From: Rhodospirillales bacterium
Lineage (GTDB): Bacteria; Pseudomonadota; Alphaproteobacteria; Acetobacterales; Acetobacteraceae
Direction of reading: 5' to 3'
Length of the DNA stretch: 64,000 nt
NCBI GenBank assembly: GCA_028869995.1
Contig: JAGWQN010000116.1
Location: forward strand, 1 to 64,000
Shown: positions 4,875 through 17,952 of the stretch, piece after piece
How positions within the stretch are numbered: the stretch's first letter is position 1
Layout: each line of letters begins with the position of its first letter
Notes under the pieces: generated by a model
Seen by the model: only the letters and a program-made list of their open reading frames with translations
The model's database searches: none
Told to the model about the DNA's origin: nothing
Program-made: the position numbers and the translations under genes

Positions 4875-5954
4875 CTAGGCGGCATCACGAAGTCGTTCGT
4901 AGATGGCGACGTATTTCCTTGCCATGGCGAATGCAGAAAGATTCTCCGCGACATGCTCGTGGGTCGAACGACGATCGATTTCGTGGATTTTCCCGATGCA
5001 CGCCACCATCTCGTCGATGTCGTCGACGACGAACCCGGTCCGTCCATCCAGGATCAGTTCGGGGACGACGCCGCGACCAAAGGCGATGACGGGACAGCCG
5101 ACCGCCATCGCTTCCACCACCACGGTCGCTCCGGGCTCTTCCCAGGTGATCGGGTTGAGGAGGGCGCGCGCGCCGCCGAGCAGGTTGAGTTTCTGTTCCA
5201 GATTAACCGGACCGATGTAGCGCGCCTGTTCGCCGTCGAGCCGTGGCTCGACCTCGCGCTTGAAATAGTCGATCGAAGCCTGCATTCCCTGCTCAACGAT
5301 GCCGGCGACGAGGATTTTCACGCCCGCGCGCTTCGCTGCGTCAATCGCAGTATGAGCCCCCTTGTCGGGAGCGAAACGACCAAGCCACGTCACATAGTCG
5401 CGCGACCCTGTCTCTGCGAAGCGATAGTCCGCCATCGGCACCCCGAGATGCACGACGCCCGCGACGTTGAGCCCAGGCGGTAGATTCTTCCTGGCCCGCT
5501 CGCTCACCGTCACCAGCGGCGCGGGGCGGATCCATTCCATGAAATATTGATCTGCGTCACCGATCCAGTCGTGGACGCGATCATAGGGGAAATTGGAATG
5601 CACCGTGGTGACGTGCGGAACCGCGATCTGAGACAGAAGCGGGAACTGGAACATGTCCGCGGTGGACGAGAGATGCAGGTGCACGATATCGAATTCACCG
5701 GCCCGCTCGATCGACTTTGCCAGATGGAAATAAGCCTTGAGCGCCGCCTGCCACGGCACGCCATCGGCGATCAGCGAATGCGGGAAGAACGAGACGAGCT
5801 TCGCCGAGGTCCGCGCGTCGCCGGGCGCGAACAGGGTGACGTCATGGCCCTGGGCCACCAGTTCCTCAACGATGAAGGCGATGATGGATTCTGTGCCTCC
5901 ATAGGTCGCAGGGGGTATGCTGATCCAAGGCGGAGCAATCATTCCGACTTTCAT
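4875..5954 (-). CDS. Glycosyltransferase family 4 protein
   Basis: GT-B fold retaining glycosyltransferase, 359 aa, likely cytoplasmic. The N-terminal acceptor domain starts MKVGMIAPPW with the glycine-rich PPATYGGTE loop typical of GT4 enzymes. The C-terminal donor domain contains WLGRFAPDKGAHTAI and the E-x7-E type motif in EEPGATVVVEAMAVGCPVIAF, which binds the nucleotide-sugar donor. No signal peptide or membrane segment is present. It lies 28 bases upstream of the monooxygenase and 31 bases downstream of a GT39-like membrane protein, so the three are probably cotranscribed. Acceptor and sugar are unknown. Confidence 0.88.
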   Translation of the reverse strand: MKVGMIAPPWISIPPATYGGTESIIAFIVEELVAQGHDVTLFAPGDARTSAKLVSFFPHSLIADGVPWQAALKAYFHLAKSIERAGEFDIVHLHLSSTADMFQFPLLSQIAVPHVTTVHSNFPYDRVHDWIGDADQYFMEWIRPAPLVTVSERARKNLPPGLNVAGVVHLGVPMADYRFAETGSRDYVTWLGRFAPDKGAHTAIDAAKRAGVKILVAGIVEQGMQASIDYFKREVEPRLDGEQARYIGPVNLEQKLNLLGGARALLNPITWEEPGATVVVEAMAVGCPVIAFGRGVVPELILDGRTGFVVDDIDEMVACIGKIHEIDRRSTHEHVAENLSAFAMARKYVAIYERLRDAA

Positions 5955-5985
5955 CTCATCGCTCCATGACCGGGATTAGGGGCTC

Positions 5986-7641
5986 TCATCGCCTGCCCTG
6001 CTTTCGCGATAGCAGCGCCTTGGGGCCGCTGAGGCGTACCAGCGCCCGCGGGTCGGCTACCCGCTGATCATTCTCTCGCAGACGCATGATGATGACCGGG
6101 TGGGCGGCCGGTCCGGTGCGCGCAATGATCTGCCAGCGTGATCCTTCGCGAAATGCTGCTTCCCTTACCTGTCGGATATGTTCCCACGCGCCCACCCGAC
6201 GGTCGTCGCGAAAGACGAGCAGCGGGATGCCGTAATGATCAATGGCGTGGATGACCTGCTGCACATGCGAAAATCGCGGCAGGTATTGACTGTTATTGTA
6301 GCCGCCACCGCCCAGAAGGCGCGATCCGCGAACGACGAAAAGGCTGGGGCGGGCGGGATCGATGGAGGCCAGTGCCGAGATCATGGCGCCTTCCCCCGGT
6401 GGCGGGGTCACAACCAGGACGACCGGATTTTGGGCCGGGACAAGCTTTCGCACCAGGCGCGCCGCCGCAAAATATCCATTGTCGGGAAGCCTGTTTGCAG
6501 AAAGCGCCGCCGGCACCAGTGAGAGGGCCGTGACCGCGACCAATGCCGGCCGAACGACCGCCGGCAACAGGCCGCGTCGGGCGACTCGTCGAGCCACACG
6601 GTACAACCCGATTCCCGCGAAGCAGAAAACCGGCGCCAACAACGGCGCGAGGTAGCGATCCTGGATCGCGGCCGGTGCGATCATCTGAAAGAGCCACACG
6701 CCGAACAATAACGCCACGAGCACGGCCCATGTCGGATCGCCGCGGCGGTATCGTAACGTGTCGAAGACGCCCATAGCAGCGAACACCAGTACCACAGGAC
6801 CGACCCCATGGTAGAGAATTGCGCTGTTGGCCCTGAGCGCCACCAGCATGTAGTGAAGACCCCAGGCGTAACGAAAGCCTGCGGCAATCTGGCTATAGGT
6901 GATCGCGTACCAGGCTCCGGCGAGAACCAGGACAACGGGGACGGGCAGCCAGAAATTGCGCTGGCGCAATAAATTCCACCGCCCGGTGACGAGAACGGCG
7001 ATCGGCGGCACAAGGGCGAGAGCGGCCCCGTTACCCTTGATCATGATCGCGGCACTCGCGACCACTCCGAACAGCAGCGCACTGCCCGCCGTTCCCGCGC
7101 GCAGGTAGCGCGCATAAGCAAGCGCTGCGAGCAGACTGGTCAAGGCCACCGGAATGTCCAGCATGAGTTCCATGCTGCCGTTCTGAATGATCGGAGAGAC
7201 AACAAGGCCGACCGCGCCCAGCATTGCGATGAGCCAACCCACGCGCCTGCGCAGCAGAATATACACAACGAGCGCGAGGGTTGTGGTCACCAGGGCCGAC
7301 AGGACCAGCGTGCCGTGCAGGCTGGTGGAGACCAGCAACATCCAGAGGGCCTCCACGAGGTAGTAGCCGGGGGCCCAGTGACCGATACCGACGAGAGGGT
7401 AGTGACTGTGAAACCAGATGAGATAAGAAATCGGCGAGCGGCCCAATCCATGCAACAGGTAGTCGTGGATCAGAAGACCATTGATGTAATGCGATGCGTC
7501 GTCGTCGGCGAACGTCCCCGAATAGGCATTGGCCAGGTACTGCAGCAGCAGCACGAGGCCGGTCAGCGGTAGCGCCAGGCCCAGCACCTCCCAGAGCGGC
7601 GTTGGCGCGCTCTCGACTTCAGGGTCCCGGTCGCCGCTCAC
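5986..7641 (-). CDS. Integral membrane glycosyltransferase, GT39/ArnT-like
   Basis: About 551 aa with roughly ten hydrophobic segments, starting with LGLALPLTGLVLLLQYLANA. Immediately after the first membrane segment comes an acidic FADDDASHY motif, the position where GT-C transferases (ArnT/PMT, DUF2029/GT39) keep catalytic Asp residues in the first periplasmic loop. This suggests transfer of a sugar from a polyprenyl-phosphate donor on the periplasmic face. A GTG start at 7641 gives a GTGA overlap with the stop of the upstream M20 peptidase and is preferred over the longer form from 7680. The C-terminal about 150 residues are soluble. Confidence 0.75.
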   Translation of the reverse strand: MSGDRDPEVESAPTPLWEVLGLALPLTGLVLLLQYLANAYSGTFADDDASHYINGLLIHDYLLHGLGRSPISYLIWFHSHYPLVGIGHWAPGYYLVEALWMLLVSTSLHGTLVLSALVTTTLALVVYILLRRRVGWLIAMLGAVGLVVSPIIQNGSMELMLDIPVALTSLLAALAYARYLRAGTAGSALLFGVVASAAIMIKGNGAALALVPPIAVLVTGRWNLLRQRNFWLPVPVVLVLAGAWYAITYSQIAAGFRYAWGLHYMLVALRANSAILYHGVGPVVLVFAAMGVFDTLRYRRGDPTWAVLVALLFGVWLFQMIAPAAIQDRYLAPLLAPVFCFAGIGLYRVARRVARRGLLPAVVRPALVAVTALSLVPAALSANRLPDNGYFAAARLVRKLVPAQNPVVLVVTPPPGEGAMISALASIDPARPSLFVVRGSRLLGGGGYNNSQYLPRFSHVQQVIHAIDHYGIPLLVFRDDRRVGAWEHIRQVREAAFREGSRWQIIARTGPAAHPVIIMRLRENDQRVADPRALVRLSGPKALLSRKQGRR

Positions 7642-11381: not shown

Positions 11382-12296
11382 ATGAAGTGGCGTCTTCTCA
11401 TGGTGGCGGCAGCCGCCGCCGCCGTGACCGCGCTTGTCGCCTGGGTCGGGGTGCGCCCGATCAGCGCCGCCGTCTGGCATGCCGCCTGGGCCATTCCCGT
11501 CGCCGTCGCAGTGCACGCGGTGCAGCTGGCCATGTCCGGCCGCGCCTGGCGCCTGCTGCTGGGGAAGGCGGCGCCGGGGCAGCCACGCATGGCGCTGCTG
11601 CGATGGCTGCGCGAAGCGATCAACTCCATGCTGCCGGTCGCCCAGATCGGGGGCGGGATCGCCACGGTGCGAATGCTGGCGCAGACCGGCATGACGCTCA
11701 CGCACGCCACGGCCGCGACGACACTCGATGTGATGATCGAGGCTGCCGCCATGACGCCGCCGGTCCTCGTTGCCCTGGCGCTGCTTGGCGCCGGACAGCC
11801 GATGGCCCTGATCGGAGGCTTCGCGGCGGTGCTGCTGGGCCTCGGCGGATTCTTCGTCGCGCAGCGAATGGGCCTGTTCCGCCTGGCCGAGCGCTTCGGC
11901 CTGCCGGGCCTGCATGATGCACTGCTGGAACTGCACGCCAACCCCGGCCCGCTGCTGGGTGCCGGGCTCTGGCACCTGTTCGCCTGGCTGCTCGGGACCG
12001 CCGAGACGTGGGTGGCCCTGCTGGCGATGGGCGCCGATGCGTCGCTGCGTTCCGCTTTCATTCTCGAAACCCTCGGTATGGTGGCGCGCGCTGCCGGGTT
12101 CGCCGTTCCCGGCGCGCTGGGCGTTCAGGAGGCCGGGTTCGTGGTCGTCGGGCAGCTCGTCGGCATTCCCGCCGATGCCGCGATCGCGGTGTCGATGATC
12201 AAGCGGGTGCGCGAGCTGCTGGTGGGCCTGCCGGGCCTCATCGTCTGGCAGGCGCATGAGGGGCGCCTCCTGCTGCGTCGCGCGCGATCGGCCTGA
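11382..12296 (+). CDS. HpnL/lysylphosphatidylglycerol-synthase-type integral membrane protein
   Basis: Polytopic inner-membrane protein, 304 aa, with about seven to eight hydrophobic segments. Family marks are INSMLPVAQIGGG in the second quarter and the C-terminal ARAAGFAVPGALGVQEAG, typical of the flippase-like HpnL/UPF0104 group (membrane part related to MprF). In hopanoid producers HpnL is encoded with hopanoid genes and is thought to move a lipid; no hopanoid biosynthesis gene is seen here, so the specific role is uncertain. A short GT4 gene converges on it, 16 bases after the stop. Confidence 0.8.
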   Translation: MKWRLLMVAAAAAAVTALVAWVGVRPISAAVWHAAWAIPVAVAVHAVQLAMSGRAWRLLLGKAAPGQPRMALLRWLREAINSMLPVAQIGGGIATVRMLAQTGMTLTHATAATTLDVMIEAAAMTPPVLVALALLGAGQPMALIGGFAAVLLGLGGFFVAQRMGLFRLAERFGLPGLHDALLELHANPGPLLGAGLWHLFAWLLGTAETWVALLAMGADASLRSAFILETLGMVARAAGFAVPGALGVQEAGFVVVGQLVGIPADAAIAVSMIKRVRELLVGLPGLIVWQAHEGRLLLRRARSA

Positions 12297-12312
12297 TCGC
12301 CTGCGCGGCCGG

Positions 12313-13545
12313 TCAGGCCCGCCCGGCCATGCGAGGTTGGACCGCGTTCGGACCCGCCCGCCCGATCGCGGGAGCCAGCCCGATCTCCGCCAATGCCGCG
12401 CAGAGCTTGGCCGGGCCGAGCGCGGCAACCGCGTGCGCCTGGCCGCGCGCGGCCAGCTCGACACGGGCGGCCGGATCGTCGGCAAGGCGACGCAGATGGG
12501 CCGCCGCCTCGCGGATATCCGCCTCGGCCCAGACCGCGCCCGGCGCCTCGTACATGCCGCTCGGGTCGGCCGCCGGCACCAGCCTGTAGCCGACCAGCGC
12601 CGCGCTGTCCGGATCCATGAACTCGAGATTGCCGGACCAGCCGGTGGCGATCACGGGCCTGCCAAGGAGCATCGCCTCCGCCGGGACCAAGCCGAACCCC
12701 TCGCTGCGGTGCAACGACATCACGATGTCGCAGGCACGGGTCAGGGCATGCGTATCCGGGGCCGACAGCGTTTCGGTGAGAATCCGGATATTGGGCGCAT
12801 CGGCCAGGGCCACCAGCGCGGCCATGTCGCGGCGAAACTGCTCCGGGAAGGTGATTTTCAGGACCAGGATGCGGTCAGCGCGTTCGCCGAACGCTTCGCG
12901 ATGCGCGGCGATGGCCGCCTCGGGGTTCTTGCGGGCCTGCGAGGAGGCCAGGTTGAGGGAAACCAGCGTCACCACCGCGTCCTCGGGCAGGCCGAAATCG
13001 GCGCGGCGCAAGGCCGACGGCTGGGGTGGCGCCATGGCCAGCGGCAAGGGCACGGCGCGGACGGGTACACCGAGCGGCGCGATGCCCCCGGCGGAGAACT
13101 CCGACAGGGTCCAGGCCTGGTGCACGAACCCGGCCCCGCGCCGCCATAACGGCGATGGCTTGGTCAGCTCCCACGTCCAGTAGCCGATCACCAGGCGTTG
13201 ACCGAGCACACCCGGCGGCAGGGCCCGCAAGGCCAGCGGCAGCATGGGCGGGTTGGCATGGATCAGCAGCGGAGCGGCGGGCGGCAGCGCAGGCGGCAGG
13301 ACGGGGTTGTCCAGATCGACCGACCAGACCGGCAGGTCGAGCCGCGAGATCGAAGCCCTCAGAACGCGCGCCGCCTGGGCGAGGCCAGTCGCCTGGCGCA
13401 TCGACGCGGCGATGATGATGCCGGTTGCCGGGCGCAGAGGCTGCGGCGCCGGCCGCGGCGCCAGCGTTGTGGCAACGGCCAGGGCGGCCCGCCGGCGCGG
13501 CCCCCGAGGCAAAAGGCGCCAGAGCTGATGTGCGAAACCGGGCAC
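12313..13545 (-). CDS. Glycosyltransferase family 4 protein
   Basis: GT-B glycosyltransferase of about 410 aa. The C-terminal donor domain carries ACDIVMSLHRSEGFGLVPAE and LGRPVIATGWSGN, the characteristic GT4 E-x7-E segment and following loop. The N-terminal 60 residues are Arg/Pro/Ala-rich; the start at GTG 13545 is the longest plausible one and no ATG is found until about residue 49, so the N terminus is tentative. The WSGNLEFMD segment resembles mannosyl- and rhamnosyltransferases, but the donor sugar cannot be decided. Its 3' end converges with the HpnL-like gene. Confidence 0.85.
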   Translation of the reverse strand: MPGFAHQLWRLLPRGPRRRAALAVATTLAPRPAPQPLRPATGIIIAASMRQATGLAQAARVLRASISRLDLPVWSVDLDNPVLPPALPPAAPLLIHANPPMLPLALRALPPGVLGQRLVIGYWTWELTKPSPLWRRGAGFVHQAWTLSEFSAGGIAPLGVPVRAVPLPLAMAPPQPSALRRADFGLPEDAVVTLVSLNLASSQARKNPEAAIAAHREAFGERADRILVLKITFPEQFRRDMAALVALADAPNIRILTETLSAPDTHALTRACDIVMSLHRSEGFGLVPAEAMLLGRPVIATGWSGNLEFMDPDSAALVGYRLVPAADPSGMYEAPGAVWAEADIREAAAHLRRLADDPAARVELAARGQAHAVAALGPAKLCAALAEIGLAPAIGRAGPNAVQPRMAGRA

Positions 13546-15118: not shown

Positions 15119-16042
15119 ATGAATCCTGGTTCGTGCTGGTTGGTGTGCGAGGATCTCGGCGGCCTGCGCAGCCAAGCGCGCGGGCTCGCCGAAGTCGCGG
15201 GGATTTCGGCGGAGGAACGGCTGTTCACCCCGCGCTTTCCGTGGTCGGCCCTGTCGCCGCGGCTCTGGCCCGCTCCGGAGCGCGTGGCCGGGCTCTCGCC
15301 CCCCTACCCCGATTTCCTGATTGGCTGCGGCGGTAACGCGGCCGCGGTCCTCGCCGCGCTGCACGGCAAGGTGCCTGGCGTGATCATCCAGCATCCGCGC
15401 ATGGATCTGCGGAAATTCGACTTCATCATCACGGCGCCGCACGACCGGCTCTCCGGTAGCAATGTCTTCGTCGCGCGCACCGCGCTGCACGGCATGACCC
15501 CCCGCCTGGCGGCGGCACGCGCCACCTGGACGCCACGCCTCGCCCATCTGCCGCGGCCACTGGTGAGCGTGCTGGTGGGCGGCTCCAACGGGCGGTTCCA
15601 GCTCAACGCGGCGGTCGCCGAGACGATCGCGGCGGATCTGCGGTCGATGATGCGGTCGGACAAGGTGGGGCTCGCCCTGACGCCCTCGCGCCGCACCGCG
15701 CCCGACGTCCGCGCGGTGTTCCAGCGCGTCCTGGCTCCCGAGGGGGCCTTTATCTGGGACATGGCGGGAGAAAATCCCTATGTCGGCATGCTGGCCTGCG
15801 CCGATGCGATCCTGGTGACGGAGGACAGCGTGTCCATGGTCTCCGAGGCGGTGGCGACGTCGGTGCCCGTGCTGACGATCGGGCTGCCAGGGAAGTCGCG
15901 ACGGATCCGCGCCTTCACGGGGGGGTTGATGGATGCCGGCCGGGTGCGCGCCTATCGCGGCCGGCTGGAGACATGGGCGGTGGAGCCGCTCGACGATACG
16001 CCTGCGGCGGCGGCGGCGCTGCGGCAACGCTTCGGGTGGTAG
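15119..16042 (+). CDS. ELM1/DUF1022-family GT-B-like protein
   Basis: About 307 aa, similar to the mitochondrial fission ELM1 family widespread in alphaproteobacteria, which has a GT-B glycosyltransferase-like fold. Visible marks are a CWLVCEDLGGLRSQARGLAE start, IQHPRMDLRKFDFIITAPHD, VLVGGSNGRFQL, and the donor-site-like DSVSMVSEAVATSVPVL. The ATG at 15119 is preferred because the family signature begins at once; the region before it (from 14927) reads as non-family sequence. The enzymatic activity of bacterial members is not settled. It is followed 14 bases later by a protein of unknown family, probably in the same operon. Confidence 0.78.
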   Translation: MNPGSCWLVCEDLGGLRSQARGLAEVAGISAEERLFTPRFPWSALSPRLWPAPERVAGLSPPYPDFLIGCGGNAAAVLAALHGKVPGVIIQHPRMDLRKFDFIITAPHDRLSGSNVFVARTALHGMTPRLAAARATWTPRLAHLPRPLVSVLVGGSNGRFQLNAAVAETIAADLRSMMRSDKVGLALTPSRRTAPDVRAVFQRVLAPEGAFIWDMAGENPYVGMLACADAILVTEDSVSMVSEAVATSVPVLTIGLPGKSRRIRAFTGGLMDAGRVRAYRGRLETWAVEPLDDTPAAAAALRQRFGW

Positions 16043-16056
16043 GGCGGGAGCCAACG

Positions 16057-17952
16057 ATGCTCGATATCGCGACCTTCGACGCCAGAGCTGGCGGCAGCGT
16101 GCTGTACAAGGCGCTGGCGCATCCGCTCGCGGCCGAGGCCCTCGCCGCGCTCGGCGAACGGCTCGCCGGACGCGAGGTGGCGCTGGTCGATCCCGAGGGA
16201 TATGGCTCGGCCCTGGTGGCTCTCGCACCGCGCGCGTTGCCGATCGCCTCCGTGCATGTCCAGGACGTCCAGCGGATCGGCCAAACCGTCGCAGGGCATG
16301 CGGCGCAGGCTCTCACCGATCTGGCCGCGCAGGGCGCCCGGGATATCCTGATCGCAAGCTTCGATGCGGGGCGGCTGGTCGCGCAGCTGCGCAGGCTGCT
16401 TCCCGAAGCGCGGATCGAAACGCTGGACGCGATCAAGCTTCCCGCGGCGATGCTGAGCGCGCCGCGCTACCTCGACCGCCTCAACTTCGCGACCAACTTC
16501 GCGTTCTTCCGCGACGCCGACGGGCTCTCGACGCGCCTTGTCTCAGCCAATTACTGGGCCGGCTACGGCGCGGGTGCGGTGCGGCTGTGGCTGCGCCTGT
16601 TCGATGCCGGCGGCCGCGTGCTCGCGACCTGGGAAGAGGCGGTGCCGTCCGCCGGCTTCGCCATCGACAGCGCCGAGGTGCGTGCGCGCTTCGGCCTCGG
16701 GCCGTTCACCGGCCAGCTCTTCCTTCACGTCGTCGGCGCGGCCGGCCACGACGTGGTGAAATACGCCCTCGACACCTATGGCGCCGGCCCCGGGGCAAGC
16801 CTTTCCTGCACCCACGACGCCAATGCCTGGCCGGCCGACCGCTATGCCGGCATCCCCGCTCCAGCCCCCGGCGAGCGCGTGGTGCTGTGGCTGCAGAACA
16901 GCCACGCGACGCCGATCCCGGCCGGCGCCATCAGCTTCGACCGCATGGGTACGGAGAGACCGGTGCCCTACCCGCACGACGTGGCGGGCTTTGGCTCGGT
17001 CGCGGTGGACATGGAAACGCTGCTGCCGGGGCTCGCCTGGCCGGCGCAGATCGAGATGCGGGCCGGCCGGCACACGGTGCGGCCACGCTACGAGGTGGTG
17101 CGGGCCGGGCGCACGCGCATCGCCCATCCCAACGTCGAGCGCGCCGACCTGCGCCCCGACCCCGCGATCCTCGACCTGCCCGAGGCGCTCGGACGCGGCT
17201 TCCTGCTGCCCCTGCCGGTGCTGCCGCGCACCCGCTTCCGCACCCTGATCCAGCCCACGCCGATGGCGACGACGCAGCAGGCGCAGCCGCTGCGGCTCGA
17301 TGTCTTCGCTGCCGACGGCACCCTCGCGGCCTCGCACGTTATCGGCGTGCTGCCGCGCAACCACGACGTCGCGCTCGACCTCGATGCGATCCTCCCGGCG
17401 GGCGCCCTGGCTGAGGGCGGGCACGCCGAGCTGCTCTACGCGCGGGGCATCGGCGGTGCCGCGGATGGCTGGCTGCACGCGCTCGTGCGCGCCGAGGCCC
17501 GCGAGGGCGGGCATGCCGCCGAAAGCAGCTTCGGCGCCCATATCTTCAACACGTTGATGACGTGGCGCGACGAACCGCAGAGCTACTCGGGCCCGCCGCC
17601 CGGGTTGTCGACCCGGCTGTTCCTCAAGCTCGGCATGCAGCTGGGCGACGCGCGGGCGAAGAGCTTCGCGCTGCTCATCTACCCGGCCTCGGCACCATGG
17701 CACGGGAGTTCGGAGACGAGTCTTCAGCTCGTGGCCGGAAACGGGGCCGTGGTCGCGCAAGCGCCGCTCGCGATACGGTGCAGCGGCTCGGCGCTGGTCG
17801 TCGCCGAGGATGTCTTCAGCCCGGCGCAGATCGCCACCGCCGGTCCGCGCGGCTACGTGCTGGTCCGCGACACGACCTGCCGATTGTTCGGGTATCACGG
17901 CCTGATGACCGAGGACGGGCGTTTCTCGCTCGACCATATGTTCGGTTTCTGA
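16057..17952 (+). CDS. Large conserved-looking protein of unknown function (631 aa)
   Basis: I do not recognise this protein. The ATG at 16057 has a good ribosome-binding site (GGGCGGGAG) and lies 14 bases after the ELM1-like gene. Residues about 1-120 look like an alternating alpha/beta domain (ALVDPEGYGSALVALA, ARDILIASFDAGRLV). Residues about 150-620 are beta-rich with aromatic patches (SANYWAGYGAG, WLRLFDAGGRVLATW, SYSGPPPGLSTRLFLKLG), suggesting beta-sandwich modules. No signal peptide, transmembrane helix or known catalytic motif is evident. Codon use is like its neighbours. Pairing with an ELM1-like GT-B protein hints at a role in envelope glycan or surface chemistry, but this is only inference. 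Confidence 0.8.
   Translation: MLDIATFDARAGGSVLYKALAHPLAAEALAALGERLAGREVALVDPEGYGSALVALAPRALPIASVHVQDVQRIGQTVAGHAAQALTDLAAQGARDILIASFDAGRLVAQLRRLLPEARIETLDAIKLPAAMLSAPRYLDRLNFATNFAFFRDADGLSTRLVSANYWAGYGAGAVRLWLRLFDAGGRVLATWEEAVPSAGFAIDSAEVRARFGLGPFTGQLFLHVVGAAGHDVVKYALDTYGAGPGASLSCTHDANAWPADRYAGIPAPAPGERVVLWLQNSHATPIPAGAISFDRMGTERPVPYPHDVAGFGSVAVDMETLLPGLAWPAQIEMRAGRHTVRPRYEVVRAGRTRIAHPNVERADLRPDPAILDLPEALGRGFLLPLPVLPRTRFRTLIQPTPMATTQQAQPLRLDVFAADGTLAASHVIGVLPRNHDVALDLDAILPAGALAEGGHAELLYARGIGGAADGWLHALVRAEAREGGHAAESSFGAHIFNTLMTWRDEPQSYSGPPPGLSTRLFLKLGMQLGDARAKSFALLIYPASAPWHGSSETSLQLVAGNGAVVAQAPLAIRCSGSALVVAEDVFSPAQIATAGPRGYVLVRDTTCRLFGYHGLMTEDGRFSLDHMFGF

What the first reader, a model, noticed from the sequence alone, without database searches (positions are those of the whole stretch)
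15119..17952. ELM1-like protein coupled to a 631-aa protein of unknown family
The two genes are 14 bases apart. I could not assign the second to any family: an alpha/beta N-terminal domain followed by a long beta-rich part. ELM1-family proteins in bacteria have a GT-B fold but no established reaction. The pair is a candidate new surface-glycan or cell-envelope system.
Basis: inference. Interest (0 to 1): 0.5.

Follow-up and report, generated by a model that had tools for sequence, protein, structure and literature searches.

The report
Sugar-transferase gene with uncharacterised partner gene
Two neighbouring genes, one for an enzyme of a family recently shown to add the acidic sugar Kdo to the bacterial outer-membrane lipid and one for a strongly conserved protein of a family nobody has described, stay paired in many alphaproteobacteria, so together they probably build or modify the innermost sugars of that outer membrane.

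Summary
In detail: an ELM1 gene (15119-16042, 307 aa, Pfam E 5e-86) and a 631-aa gene (16057-17952), same strand, 14 bp apart. The 631-aa protein ('UN') has no credible match in Pfam, NCBIfam or PDB sequences, nor by Foldseek with a confident AlphaFold model (pLDDT 88). UN is a real, strongly conserved family restricted in our samples to Alphaproteobacteria (86 of 385 genomes). 85 of those 86 also have ELM1. In Acetobacteraceae 79 of 80 loci keep ELM1 directly upstream although other neighbours change. Elsewhere in the class the order is often ELM1 - 2OG-Fe(II) oxygenase - UN, in a carAB-greA-lrp-...-trxB locus; relatives without UN keep that locus with ELM1 alone. The window protein keeps the SRRT motif needed there. 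Best reading: a cytosolic LPS inner-core module, with ELM1 adding a Kdo-type sugar and UN, sometimes with the oxygenase, acting on the same acceptor. UN's chemistry is unknown; LPS involvement here is inferred from homology and context, not shown.

The parts
15119..16042 (+). ELM1 (PF06258) protein, GT-B-type glycosyltransferase of the KdoT kind, 307 aa
   Evidence: Pfam 5.3e-86; SRRT at residues 190-193, HD at 108-109, NPY at 219-221; KdoT biochemistry from PMC12856342
15686..15697 (+). codons of the SRRT motif (residues 190-193), the motif whose second Arg (R180 in KdoT) is needed for full Kdo transfer
   Evidence: translation, position, present in 106 of 107 dereplicated ELM1 rows; mutagenesis in PMC12856342
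16043..16056 (+). 14-bp gap between the two genes, with GGGAG upstream of the UN start
   Evidence: sequence
16057..17952 (+). UN: 631-aa protein, probably cytosolic, of an undescribed alphaproteobacterial family
   Evidence: no family, PDB or fold match; no transmembrane stretch
16093..16482 (+). UN N-terminal alpha/beta domain (about residues 13-142), with the conserved GG....KA..HP segment at its start
   Evidence: AF2 secondary structure, conservation
16483..17949 (+). UN beta-rich part (about residues 143-631), read here as about four beta sandwiches, with conserved LSCTHDANAWP, QNSH, VRPRYE, AH.NVER, SFGAH..N, EPQSY, CRLFG.HG and DHMFG motifs
   Evidence: AF2; conservation over 126 rows; domain borders are my inference from the strand pattern
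12313..13545 (-). GT4-type glycosyltransferase two genes upstream, opposite strand; homologs lie close to ELM1 in 10 other fetched loci
   Evidence: Pfam 1.4e-9; membership in the module is inference only

Best explanation
ELM1 and UN form a cytosolic two-gene module of LPS inner-core assembly (a three-gene module with a 2OG-Fe(II) oxygenase in much of the class). ELM1 is a KdoT-like GT-B glycosyltransferase: at the cytoplasmic face of the inner membrane it moves a Kdo-type ulosonic acid from its CMP donor to the Kdo-lipid A acceptor made by WaaA. UN works in the same step or the next one on that acceptor: its N-terminal alpha/beta domain and strongly conserved polar patches on beta sandwiches bind, and more likely than not also chemically modify, the newly added inner-core sugar. 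Shown: gene pairing, conservation, motif, co-occurrence. Inferred from a characterised homolog: ELM1's reaction. Inferred from gene coupling only: that UN acts on the same molecule. Not known: UN's reaction.
For: ELM1 identity and KdoT motifs SRRT, HD with KdoT biochemistry and partial complementation by a Rickettsia ELM1. WaaA is present in all 15 Acetobacteraceae tested, in our genome next to an lpxK-type gene (L175). UN comes with ELM1 in 85/86 genomes (Fisher p 7e-8). ELM1 is directly upstream in 79/80 Acetobacteraceae loci, 65 of 78 measured gaps at most 25 bp, while the next commonest neighbour family occurs in 14 loci. In 36 class-level loci outside the family, ELM1 is within five genes upstream in 28, immediately in 12, with the oxygenase between in 13. 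The oxygenase co-occurs with UN (57/86 against 9/299; within Acetobacteraceae 32/35 against 14/35). Recurrent neighbours are GT4 and GT9 (heptosyltransferase family) proteins. UN is more conserved than ELM1 (23.5% against 11.9% of columns at least 95% identical) and has no TM segment.
Against: No experiment on any UN protein was found. ELM1 occurs without UN in 229 of 299 UN-less genomes, so UN is dispensable for whatever ELM1 does generally. No sequence of A. baumannii KdoT could be fetched here, so orthology of P0001 to KdoT rests on Pfam family, motif and the positions given in the paper. Some Acetobacteraceae reportedly have Ko and no detected Kdo (PMC8036547), so the donor may not be Kdo. 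Co-occurrence p-values ignore shared ancestry. The pair in the window does not lie in a recognisable LPS operon.
Confidence: 0.55

Rival explanations
1. UN is a non-catalytic partner: a lectin-like scaffold or chaperone that holds the Kdo-lipid A acceptor, or pairs with ELM1 in a complex, so that transfer works in the cell.
For: Beta-sandwich architecture; dependence on ELM1 (85/86) and adjacency; KdoT needs its partner GnaT in vivo though not in vitro (PMC12856342).
Against: UN has twice the share of near-invariant columns of the enzyme ELM1, with many invariant His, Asp, Glu, Arg and Trp, which fits catalysis better; most ELM1 proteins in the class do without it.
Confidence: 0.25
2. The module makes another glycoconjugate (exopolysaccharide, glycolipid or protein glycan); ELM1 here uses a different donor or acceptor from KdoT.
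For: The ELM1 family is diverse (several distant paralogs per genome in genus g13); neighbours in Acetobacteraceae include GT4 genes of unknown target; Kdo was not detected in Granulibacter LPS.
Against: SRRT, whose Arg is modelled next to the Kdo carboxylate, is kept in 106 of 107 rows; a distant alphaproteobacterial ELM1 partly replaces KdoT; GT9 heptosyltransferase-family neighbours.
Confidence: 0.25
3. UN sits beside ELM1 for expression reasons only and has an unrelated job.
For: In many alphaproteobacteria the locus is flanked by housekeeping genes carAB, greA, trxB.
Against: Pairing survives complete change of flanks in Acetobacteraceae; the only UN genome without a detected ELM1 is 70% complete.
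Confidence: 0.1

Closest known systems
KdoT (ELM1 protein A1S_2903, Acinetobacter baumannii), KdoIII transferase
   Same: PF06258 family; SRRT and HD motifs at matching places; no TM segments; a host with WaaA
   Different: KdoT's partner is the GT4 enzyme GnaT; the window ELM1 is followed by UN, which is not a GT4. Activity of P0001 not tested; its identity to KdoT not measured here
KdoO, Kdo 3-hydroxylase (PF11004), makes Ko in Burkholderia and Yersinia
   Same: A 2OG-Fe(II) oxygenase is part of the wider module (His105, Asp107, His164 and Arg174 invariant), so an oxidative change of an inner-core sugar is conceivable
   Different: The module's oxygenase is a different family (PF13640, prolyl-hydroxylase-like); true PF11004 was found in 2 of 15 Acetobacteraceae and not in this genome
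Rickettsia rickettsii ELM1
   Same: Alphaproteobacterial ELM1 that partly restores core synthesis in a kdoT mutant (PMC12856342)
   Different: Presence of UN in Rickettsia was not examined
Plant ELM1 (mitochondrial fission)
   Same: Family name and Pfam model
   Different: The plant role in dynamin recruitment has no bearing on a bacterial gene; the annotation 'mitochondrial fission' is misleading here

Membership tests
ELM1 (PF06258) | Full-length match above the curated cut-off | tested here: met
   288.9 bits against cut-off 27, profile 2-304 of 304
KdoT (KdoIII transferase) | SRRT motif | tested here: met
   S190 R191 R192 T193; 106 of 107 rows
[quoted passage not shown]
   Needs an enzyme assay
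KdoT (KdoIII transferase) | Host makes the Kdo-lipid A acceptor (WaaA present) | tested here: met
   PF04413 match in G000:C50, 9.3e-52, beside an lpxK-type gene judged by its sequence start only (L175)
KdoT (KdoIII transferase) | Sequence orthology to A. baumannii KdoT | not tested
Any described protein family, for UN | Match above a curated cut-off in Pfam or NCBIfam | tested here: not met
   P0002 alone and 61 or 49 family members
Any fold of known function, for UN | Convincing structural match | tested here: not met
   Best PDB and BFVD hits have TM-scores near 0.1 and generic beta-sandwich identity; predicted cellular structures were not searchable
2OG-Fe(II) oxygenase (third gene in relatives) | HxD...H iron ligands and 2OG-binding Arg | tested here: met
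   H105, D107, H164, R174 invariant; PF13640 at 1e-9 to 2e-11
KdoO (PF11004) | Match to PF11004 in this genome | tested here: not met
   No match in G000, 2 of 15 relatives positive; G000 is 77% complete

The most novel reading that the evidence does not exclude
UN is the founding member of a new enzyme family that, with a KdoT-type transferase and a prolyl-hydroxylase-like oxygenase, makes a so far undescribed inner-core sugar modification conserved across a large part of the Alphaproteobacteria.
Probability: 0.35. Interest if true: 0.75.

Novelty: new variant of a known kind. Interest (0 to 1): 0.52.

Why it matters
ELM1 genes are in about 80% of the alphaproteobacterial genomes sampled and are still annotated 'mitochondrial fission'. 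If the module is what it seems, it gives an inner-core step spread over much of the class, a function for an undescribed 631-aa family, and a testable route to the unusual acid-stable Kdo/Ko-lipid A linkage reported for acetic acid bacteria.

Tried and rejected
(1) N-terminal domain of UN as a nucleotide-sugar or CoA-type Rossmann domain: suggested by the beta-alpha-beta pattern, not confirmed; my second structure job was run on the fragment without an alignment and gave pLDDT 40, so it says nothing; this was a planning error. (2) RskA_C, MucB_RseB, Mur_ligase and Asp/Glu racemase hits: all below cut-off and scattered, rejected. (3) Complement C3, GH2 and phage tail fold hits: TM about 0.1, long-chain beta-sandwich background, rejected. 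(4) Internal repeats among the beta sandwiches: hhalign D2-D5 and D4-D5 align over most of their length but at about 1% probability, not significant. (5) UN on plasmids: none. (6) UN outside Alphaproteobacteria: none among 399 genomes sampled from the phylum. (7) KdoO as the module's oxygenase: PF11004 absent from this genome and from most relatives tested. (8) UN as a rare or recent gene: rejected by 428 loci.

Full report
What is there. The two genes are as described: ELM1 at 15119-16042 and a 631-codon gene, called UN here, at 16057-17952, 14 bp apart on the + strand. ELM1 matches PF06258 over its whole length at 5.3e-86. UN matches no Pfam or NCBIfam family above cut-off, and neither do 61 close or 49 diverse family members. 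Profiles of the family find no PDB chain better than E 0.5.

UN is a real family. A full-length homolog was found in 107 of 200 genomes of the order, all in the window's own family, one copy each, and 428 confirmed stretches in the GTDB contig collection; named loci include Acidisphaera, Acidiphilium, Acidocella, Acidisoma, Lichenicoccus and Endobacter. A profile (A1) finds it in 86 of 385 genomes sampled across the class, spread over many families, and in a phylum-wide sample of 399 genomes only in alphaproteobacteria. Across 126 dereplicated rows 23.5% of columns are at least 95% identical, against 11.9% for the ELM1 rows. Neither protein has a transmembrane stretch, so a cytosolic place is likely.

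Structure of UN. AlphaFold2 with A1 gives mean pLDDT 88.4 and pTM 0.89: an alpha/beta domain (about 13-142) and then a beta-rich part, which I read as about four sandwiches. Foldseek against the PDB and BFVD returns only generic multi-sandwich chains with TM-scores near 0.1. The fold of the N-terminal domain alone stays unassigned, since the fragment model was poor.

Coupling. In Acetobacteraceae ELM1 lies directly upstream of UN on the same strand in 79 of the 80 loci (the exception is L083, where none was detected); 65 of 78 measured gaps are at most 25 bp. The flanks change: after ELM1 and UN the commonest neighbour family occurs in 14 loci, an AstE/AspA-type hydrolase, followed by a GT9 heptosyltransferase-family protein and two GT4 glycosyltransferases in about 7-10 loci each. 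Elsewhere in the class the locus is typically carA-carB-greA-lrp(opposite strand)-ELM1-[2OG oxygenase]-UN-trxB-lysR. Of 36 such loci, ELM1 is within five genes upstream in 28, immediately in 12, and ELM1-oxygenase-UN are consecutive in 13. Genomes without UN keep the same locus with ELM1 but no UN (L194, L196, L197). UN occurs with ELM1 in 85 of 86 genomes (the other is 70% complete), ELM1 without UN in 229 of 299. An ELM1 tree mixes UN-plus and UN-minus rows; in the Acetobacteraceae clade that holds the window, UN-minus lineages sit inside a mostly UN-plus group, which fits repeated loss (bootstrap not settled, many forks open).

The third gene. The 207-aa protein between them matches 2OG-FeII_Oxy_3 with invariant iron and 2OG ligands and resembles solved prolyl-4-hydroxylase-like enzymes (9blq, E 2e-16). 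Its close relatives are in 66 of 385 genomes: 57 with UN, 9 without. In this genome two homologs lie elsewhere (C20 and C69), one beside zapE/mdh-like genes as in G004. In Acetobacteraceae 32 of 35 UN-plus and 14 of 35 UN-minus genomes have one. In G213 and G241 the oxygenase is beside ELM1 without UN, so it is tied to ELM1 also on its own. These counts are not corrected for shared ancestry.

What ELM1 does. In A. baumannii the ELM1 protein KdoT transfers the third Kdo from CMP-Kdo to Kdo2-lipid IVA in vitro; its SRRT motif is needed, and a Rickettsia homolog partly restores the core (PMC12856342). The window ELM1 has SRRT at 190-193 and HD at 108-109 (KdoT: R179/R180, H109/D110); SRRT is in 106 of 107 rows. 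WaaA, which makes the acceptor, is in this genome and in 14 relatives tested. Some acetic acid bacteria carry Ko in place of Kdo (PMC8036547), so the exact donor is open.

Mechanism. Best reading: a cytosolic inner-core module in which ELM1 adds a Kdo-type sugar and UN acts on the same acceptor in the same or next step; the oxygenase, where present, may oxidise that sugar. The step from gene coupling to UN's action is inference. UN's conservation argues for catalysis rather than a passive scaffold, but no active site has been shown.

Novelty. ELM1 is a member of a known kind. UN is an undescribed family, and the ELM1-oxygenase-UN module was found in no paper of the library searched; most subscription journals are not covered, so prior description elsewhere cannot be excluded.

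Noticed in passing
window 4875-7641 and 11448-13545: Other envelope-type genes nearby: a GT4 (4875-5954), a PMT_2 protein (5986-7641), an LPG_synthase_TM-type protein (11448-12293) and a GT4 (12313-13545), interleaved with a cysS-like gene, an SpoU methylase and a PHA depolymerase.
   Followed up: partly
G000:C20:2259-2885 and G000:C69:6540-7145 (L173, L174): Two further prolyl-hydroxylase-like 2OG oxygenases in this genome, one at a place shared with G004 beside zapE/mdh-like genes.
   Followed up: partly
L106:2629-3660 and 13 other Acetobacteraceae loci: An AstE/AspA-type (succinylglutamate desuccinylase/aspartoacylase) gene lies a little upstream of ELM1-UN on the opposite strand in about 14 loci; meaning unknown.
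   Followed up: no
genus g13 genomes (G014, G025, G040, G045, G048, G056, G063, G076, G077): Two or three ELM1 genes per genome and an oxygenase but no UN; the second and third ELM1 copies are distant (E 1e-19 to 1e-32).
   Followed up: no
L133:9603-10946: In G258 a PAP2-type phosphatase and a divergent PMT_2 gene are inserted between ELM1 and UN; both are types that modify lipid A in other bacteria.
   Followed up: no
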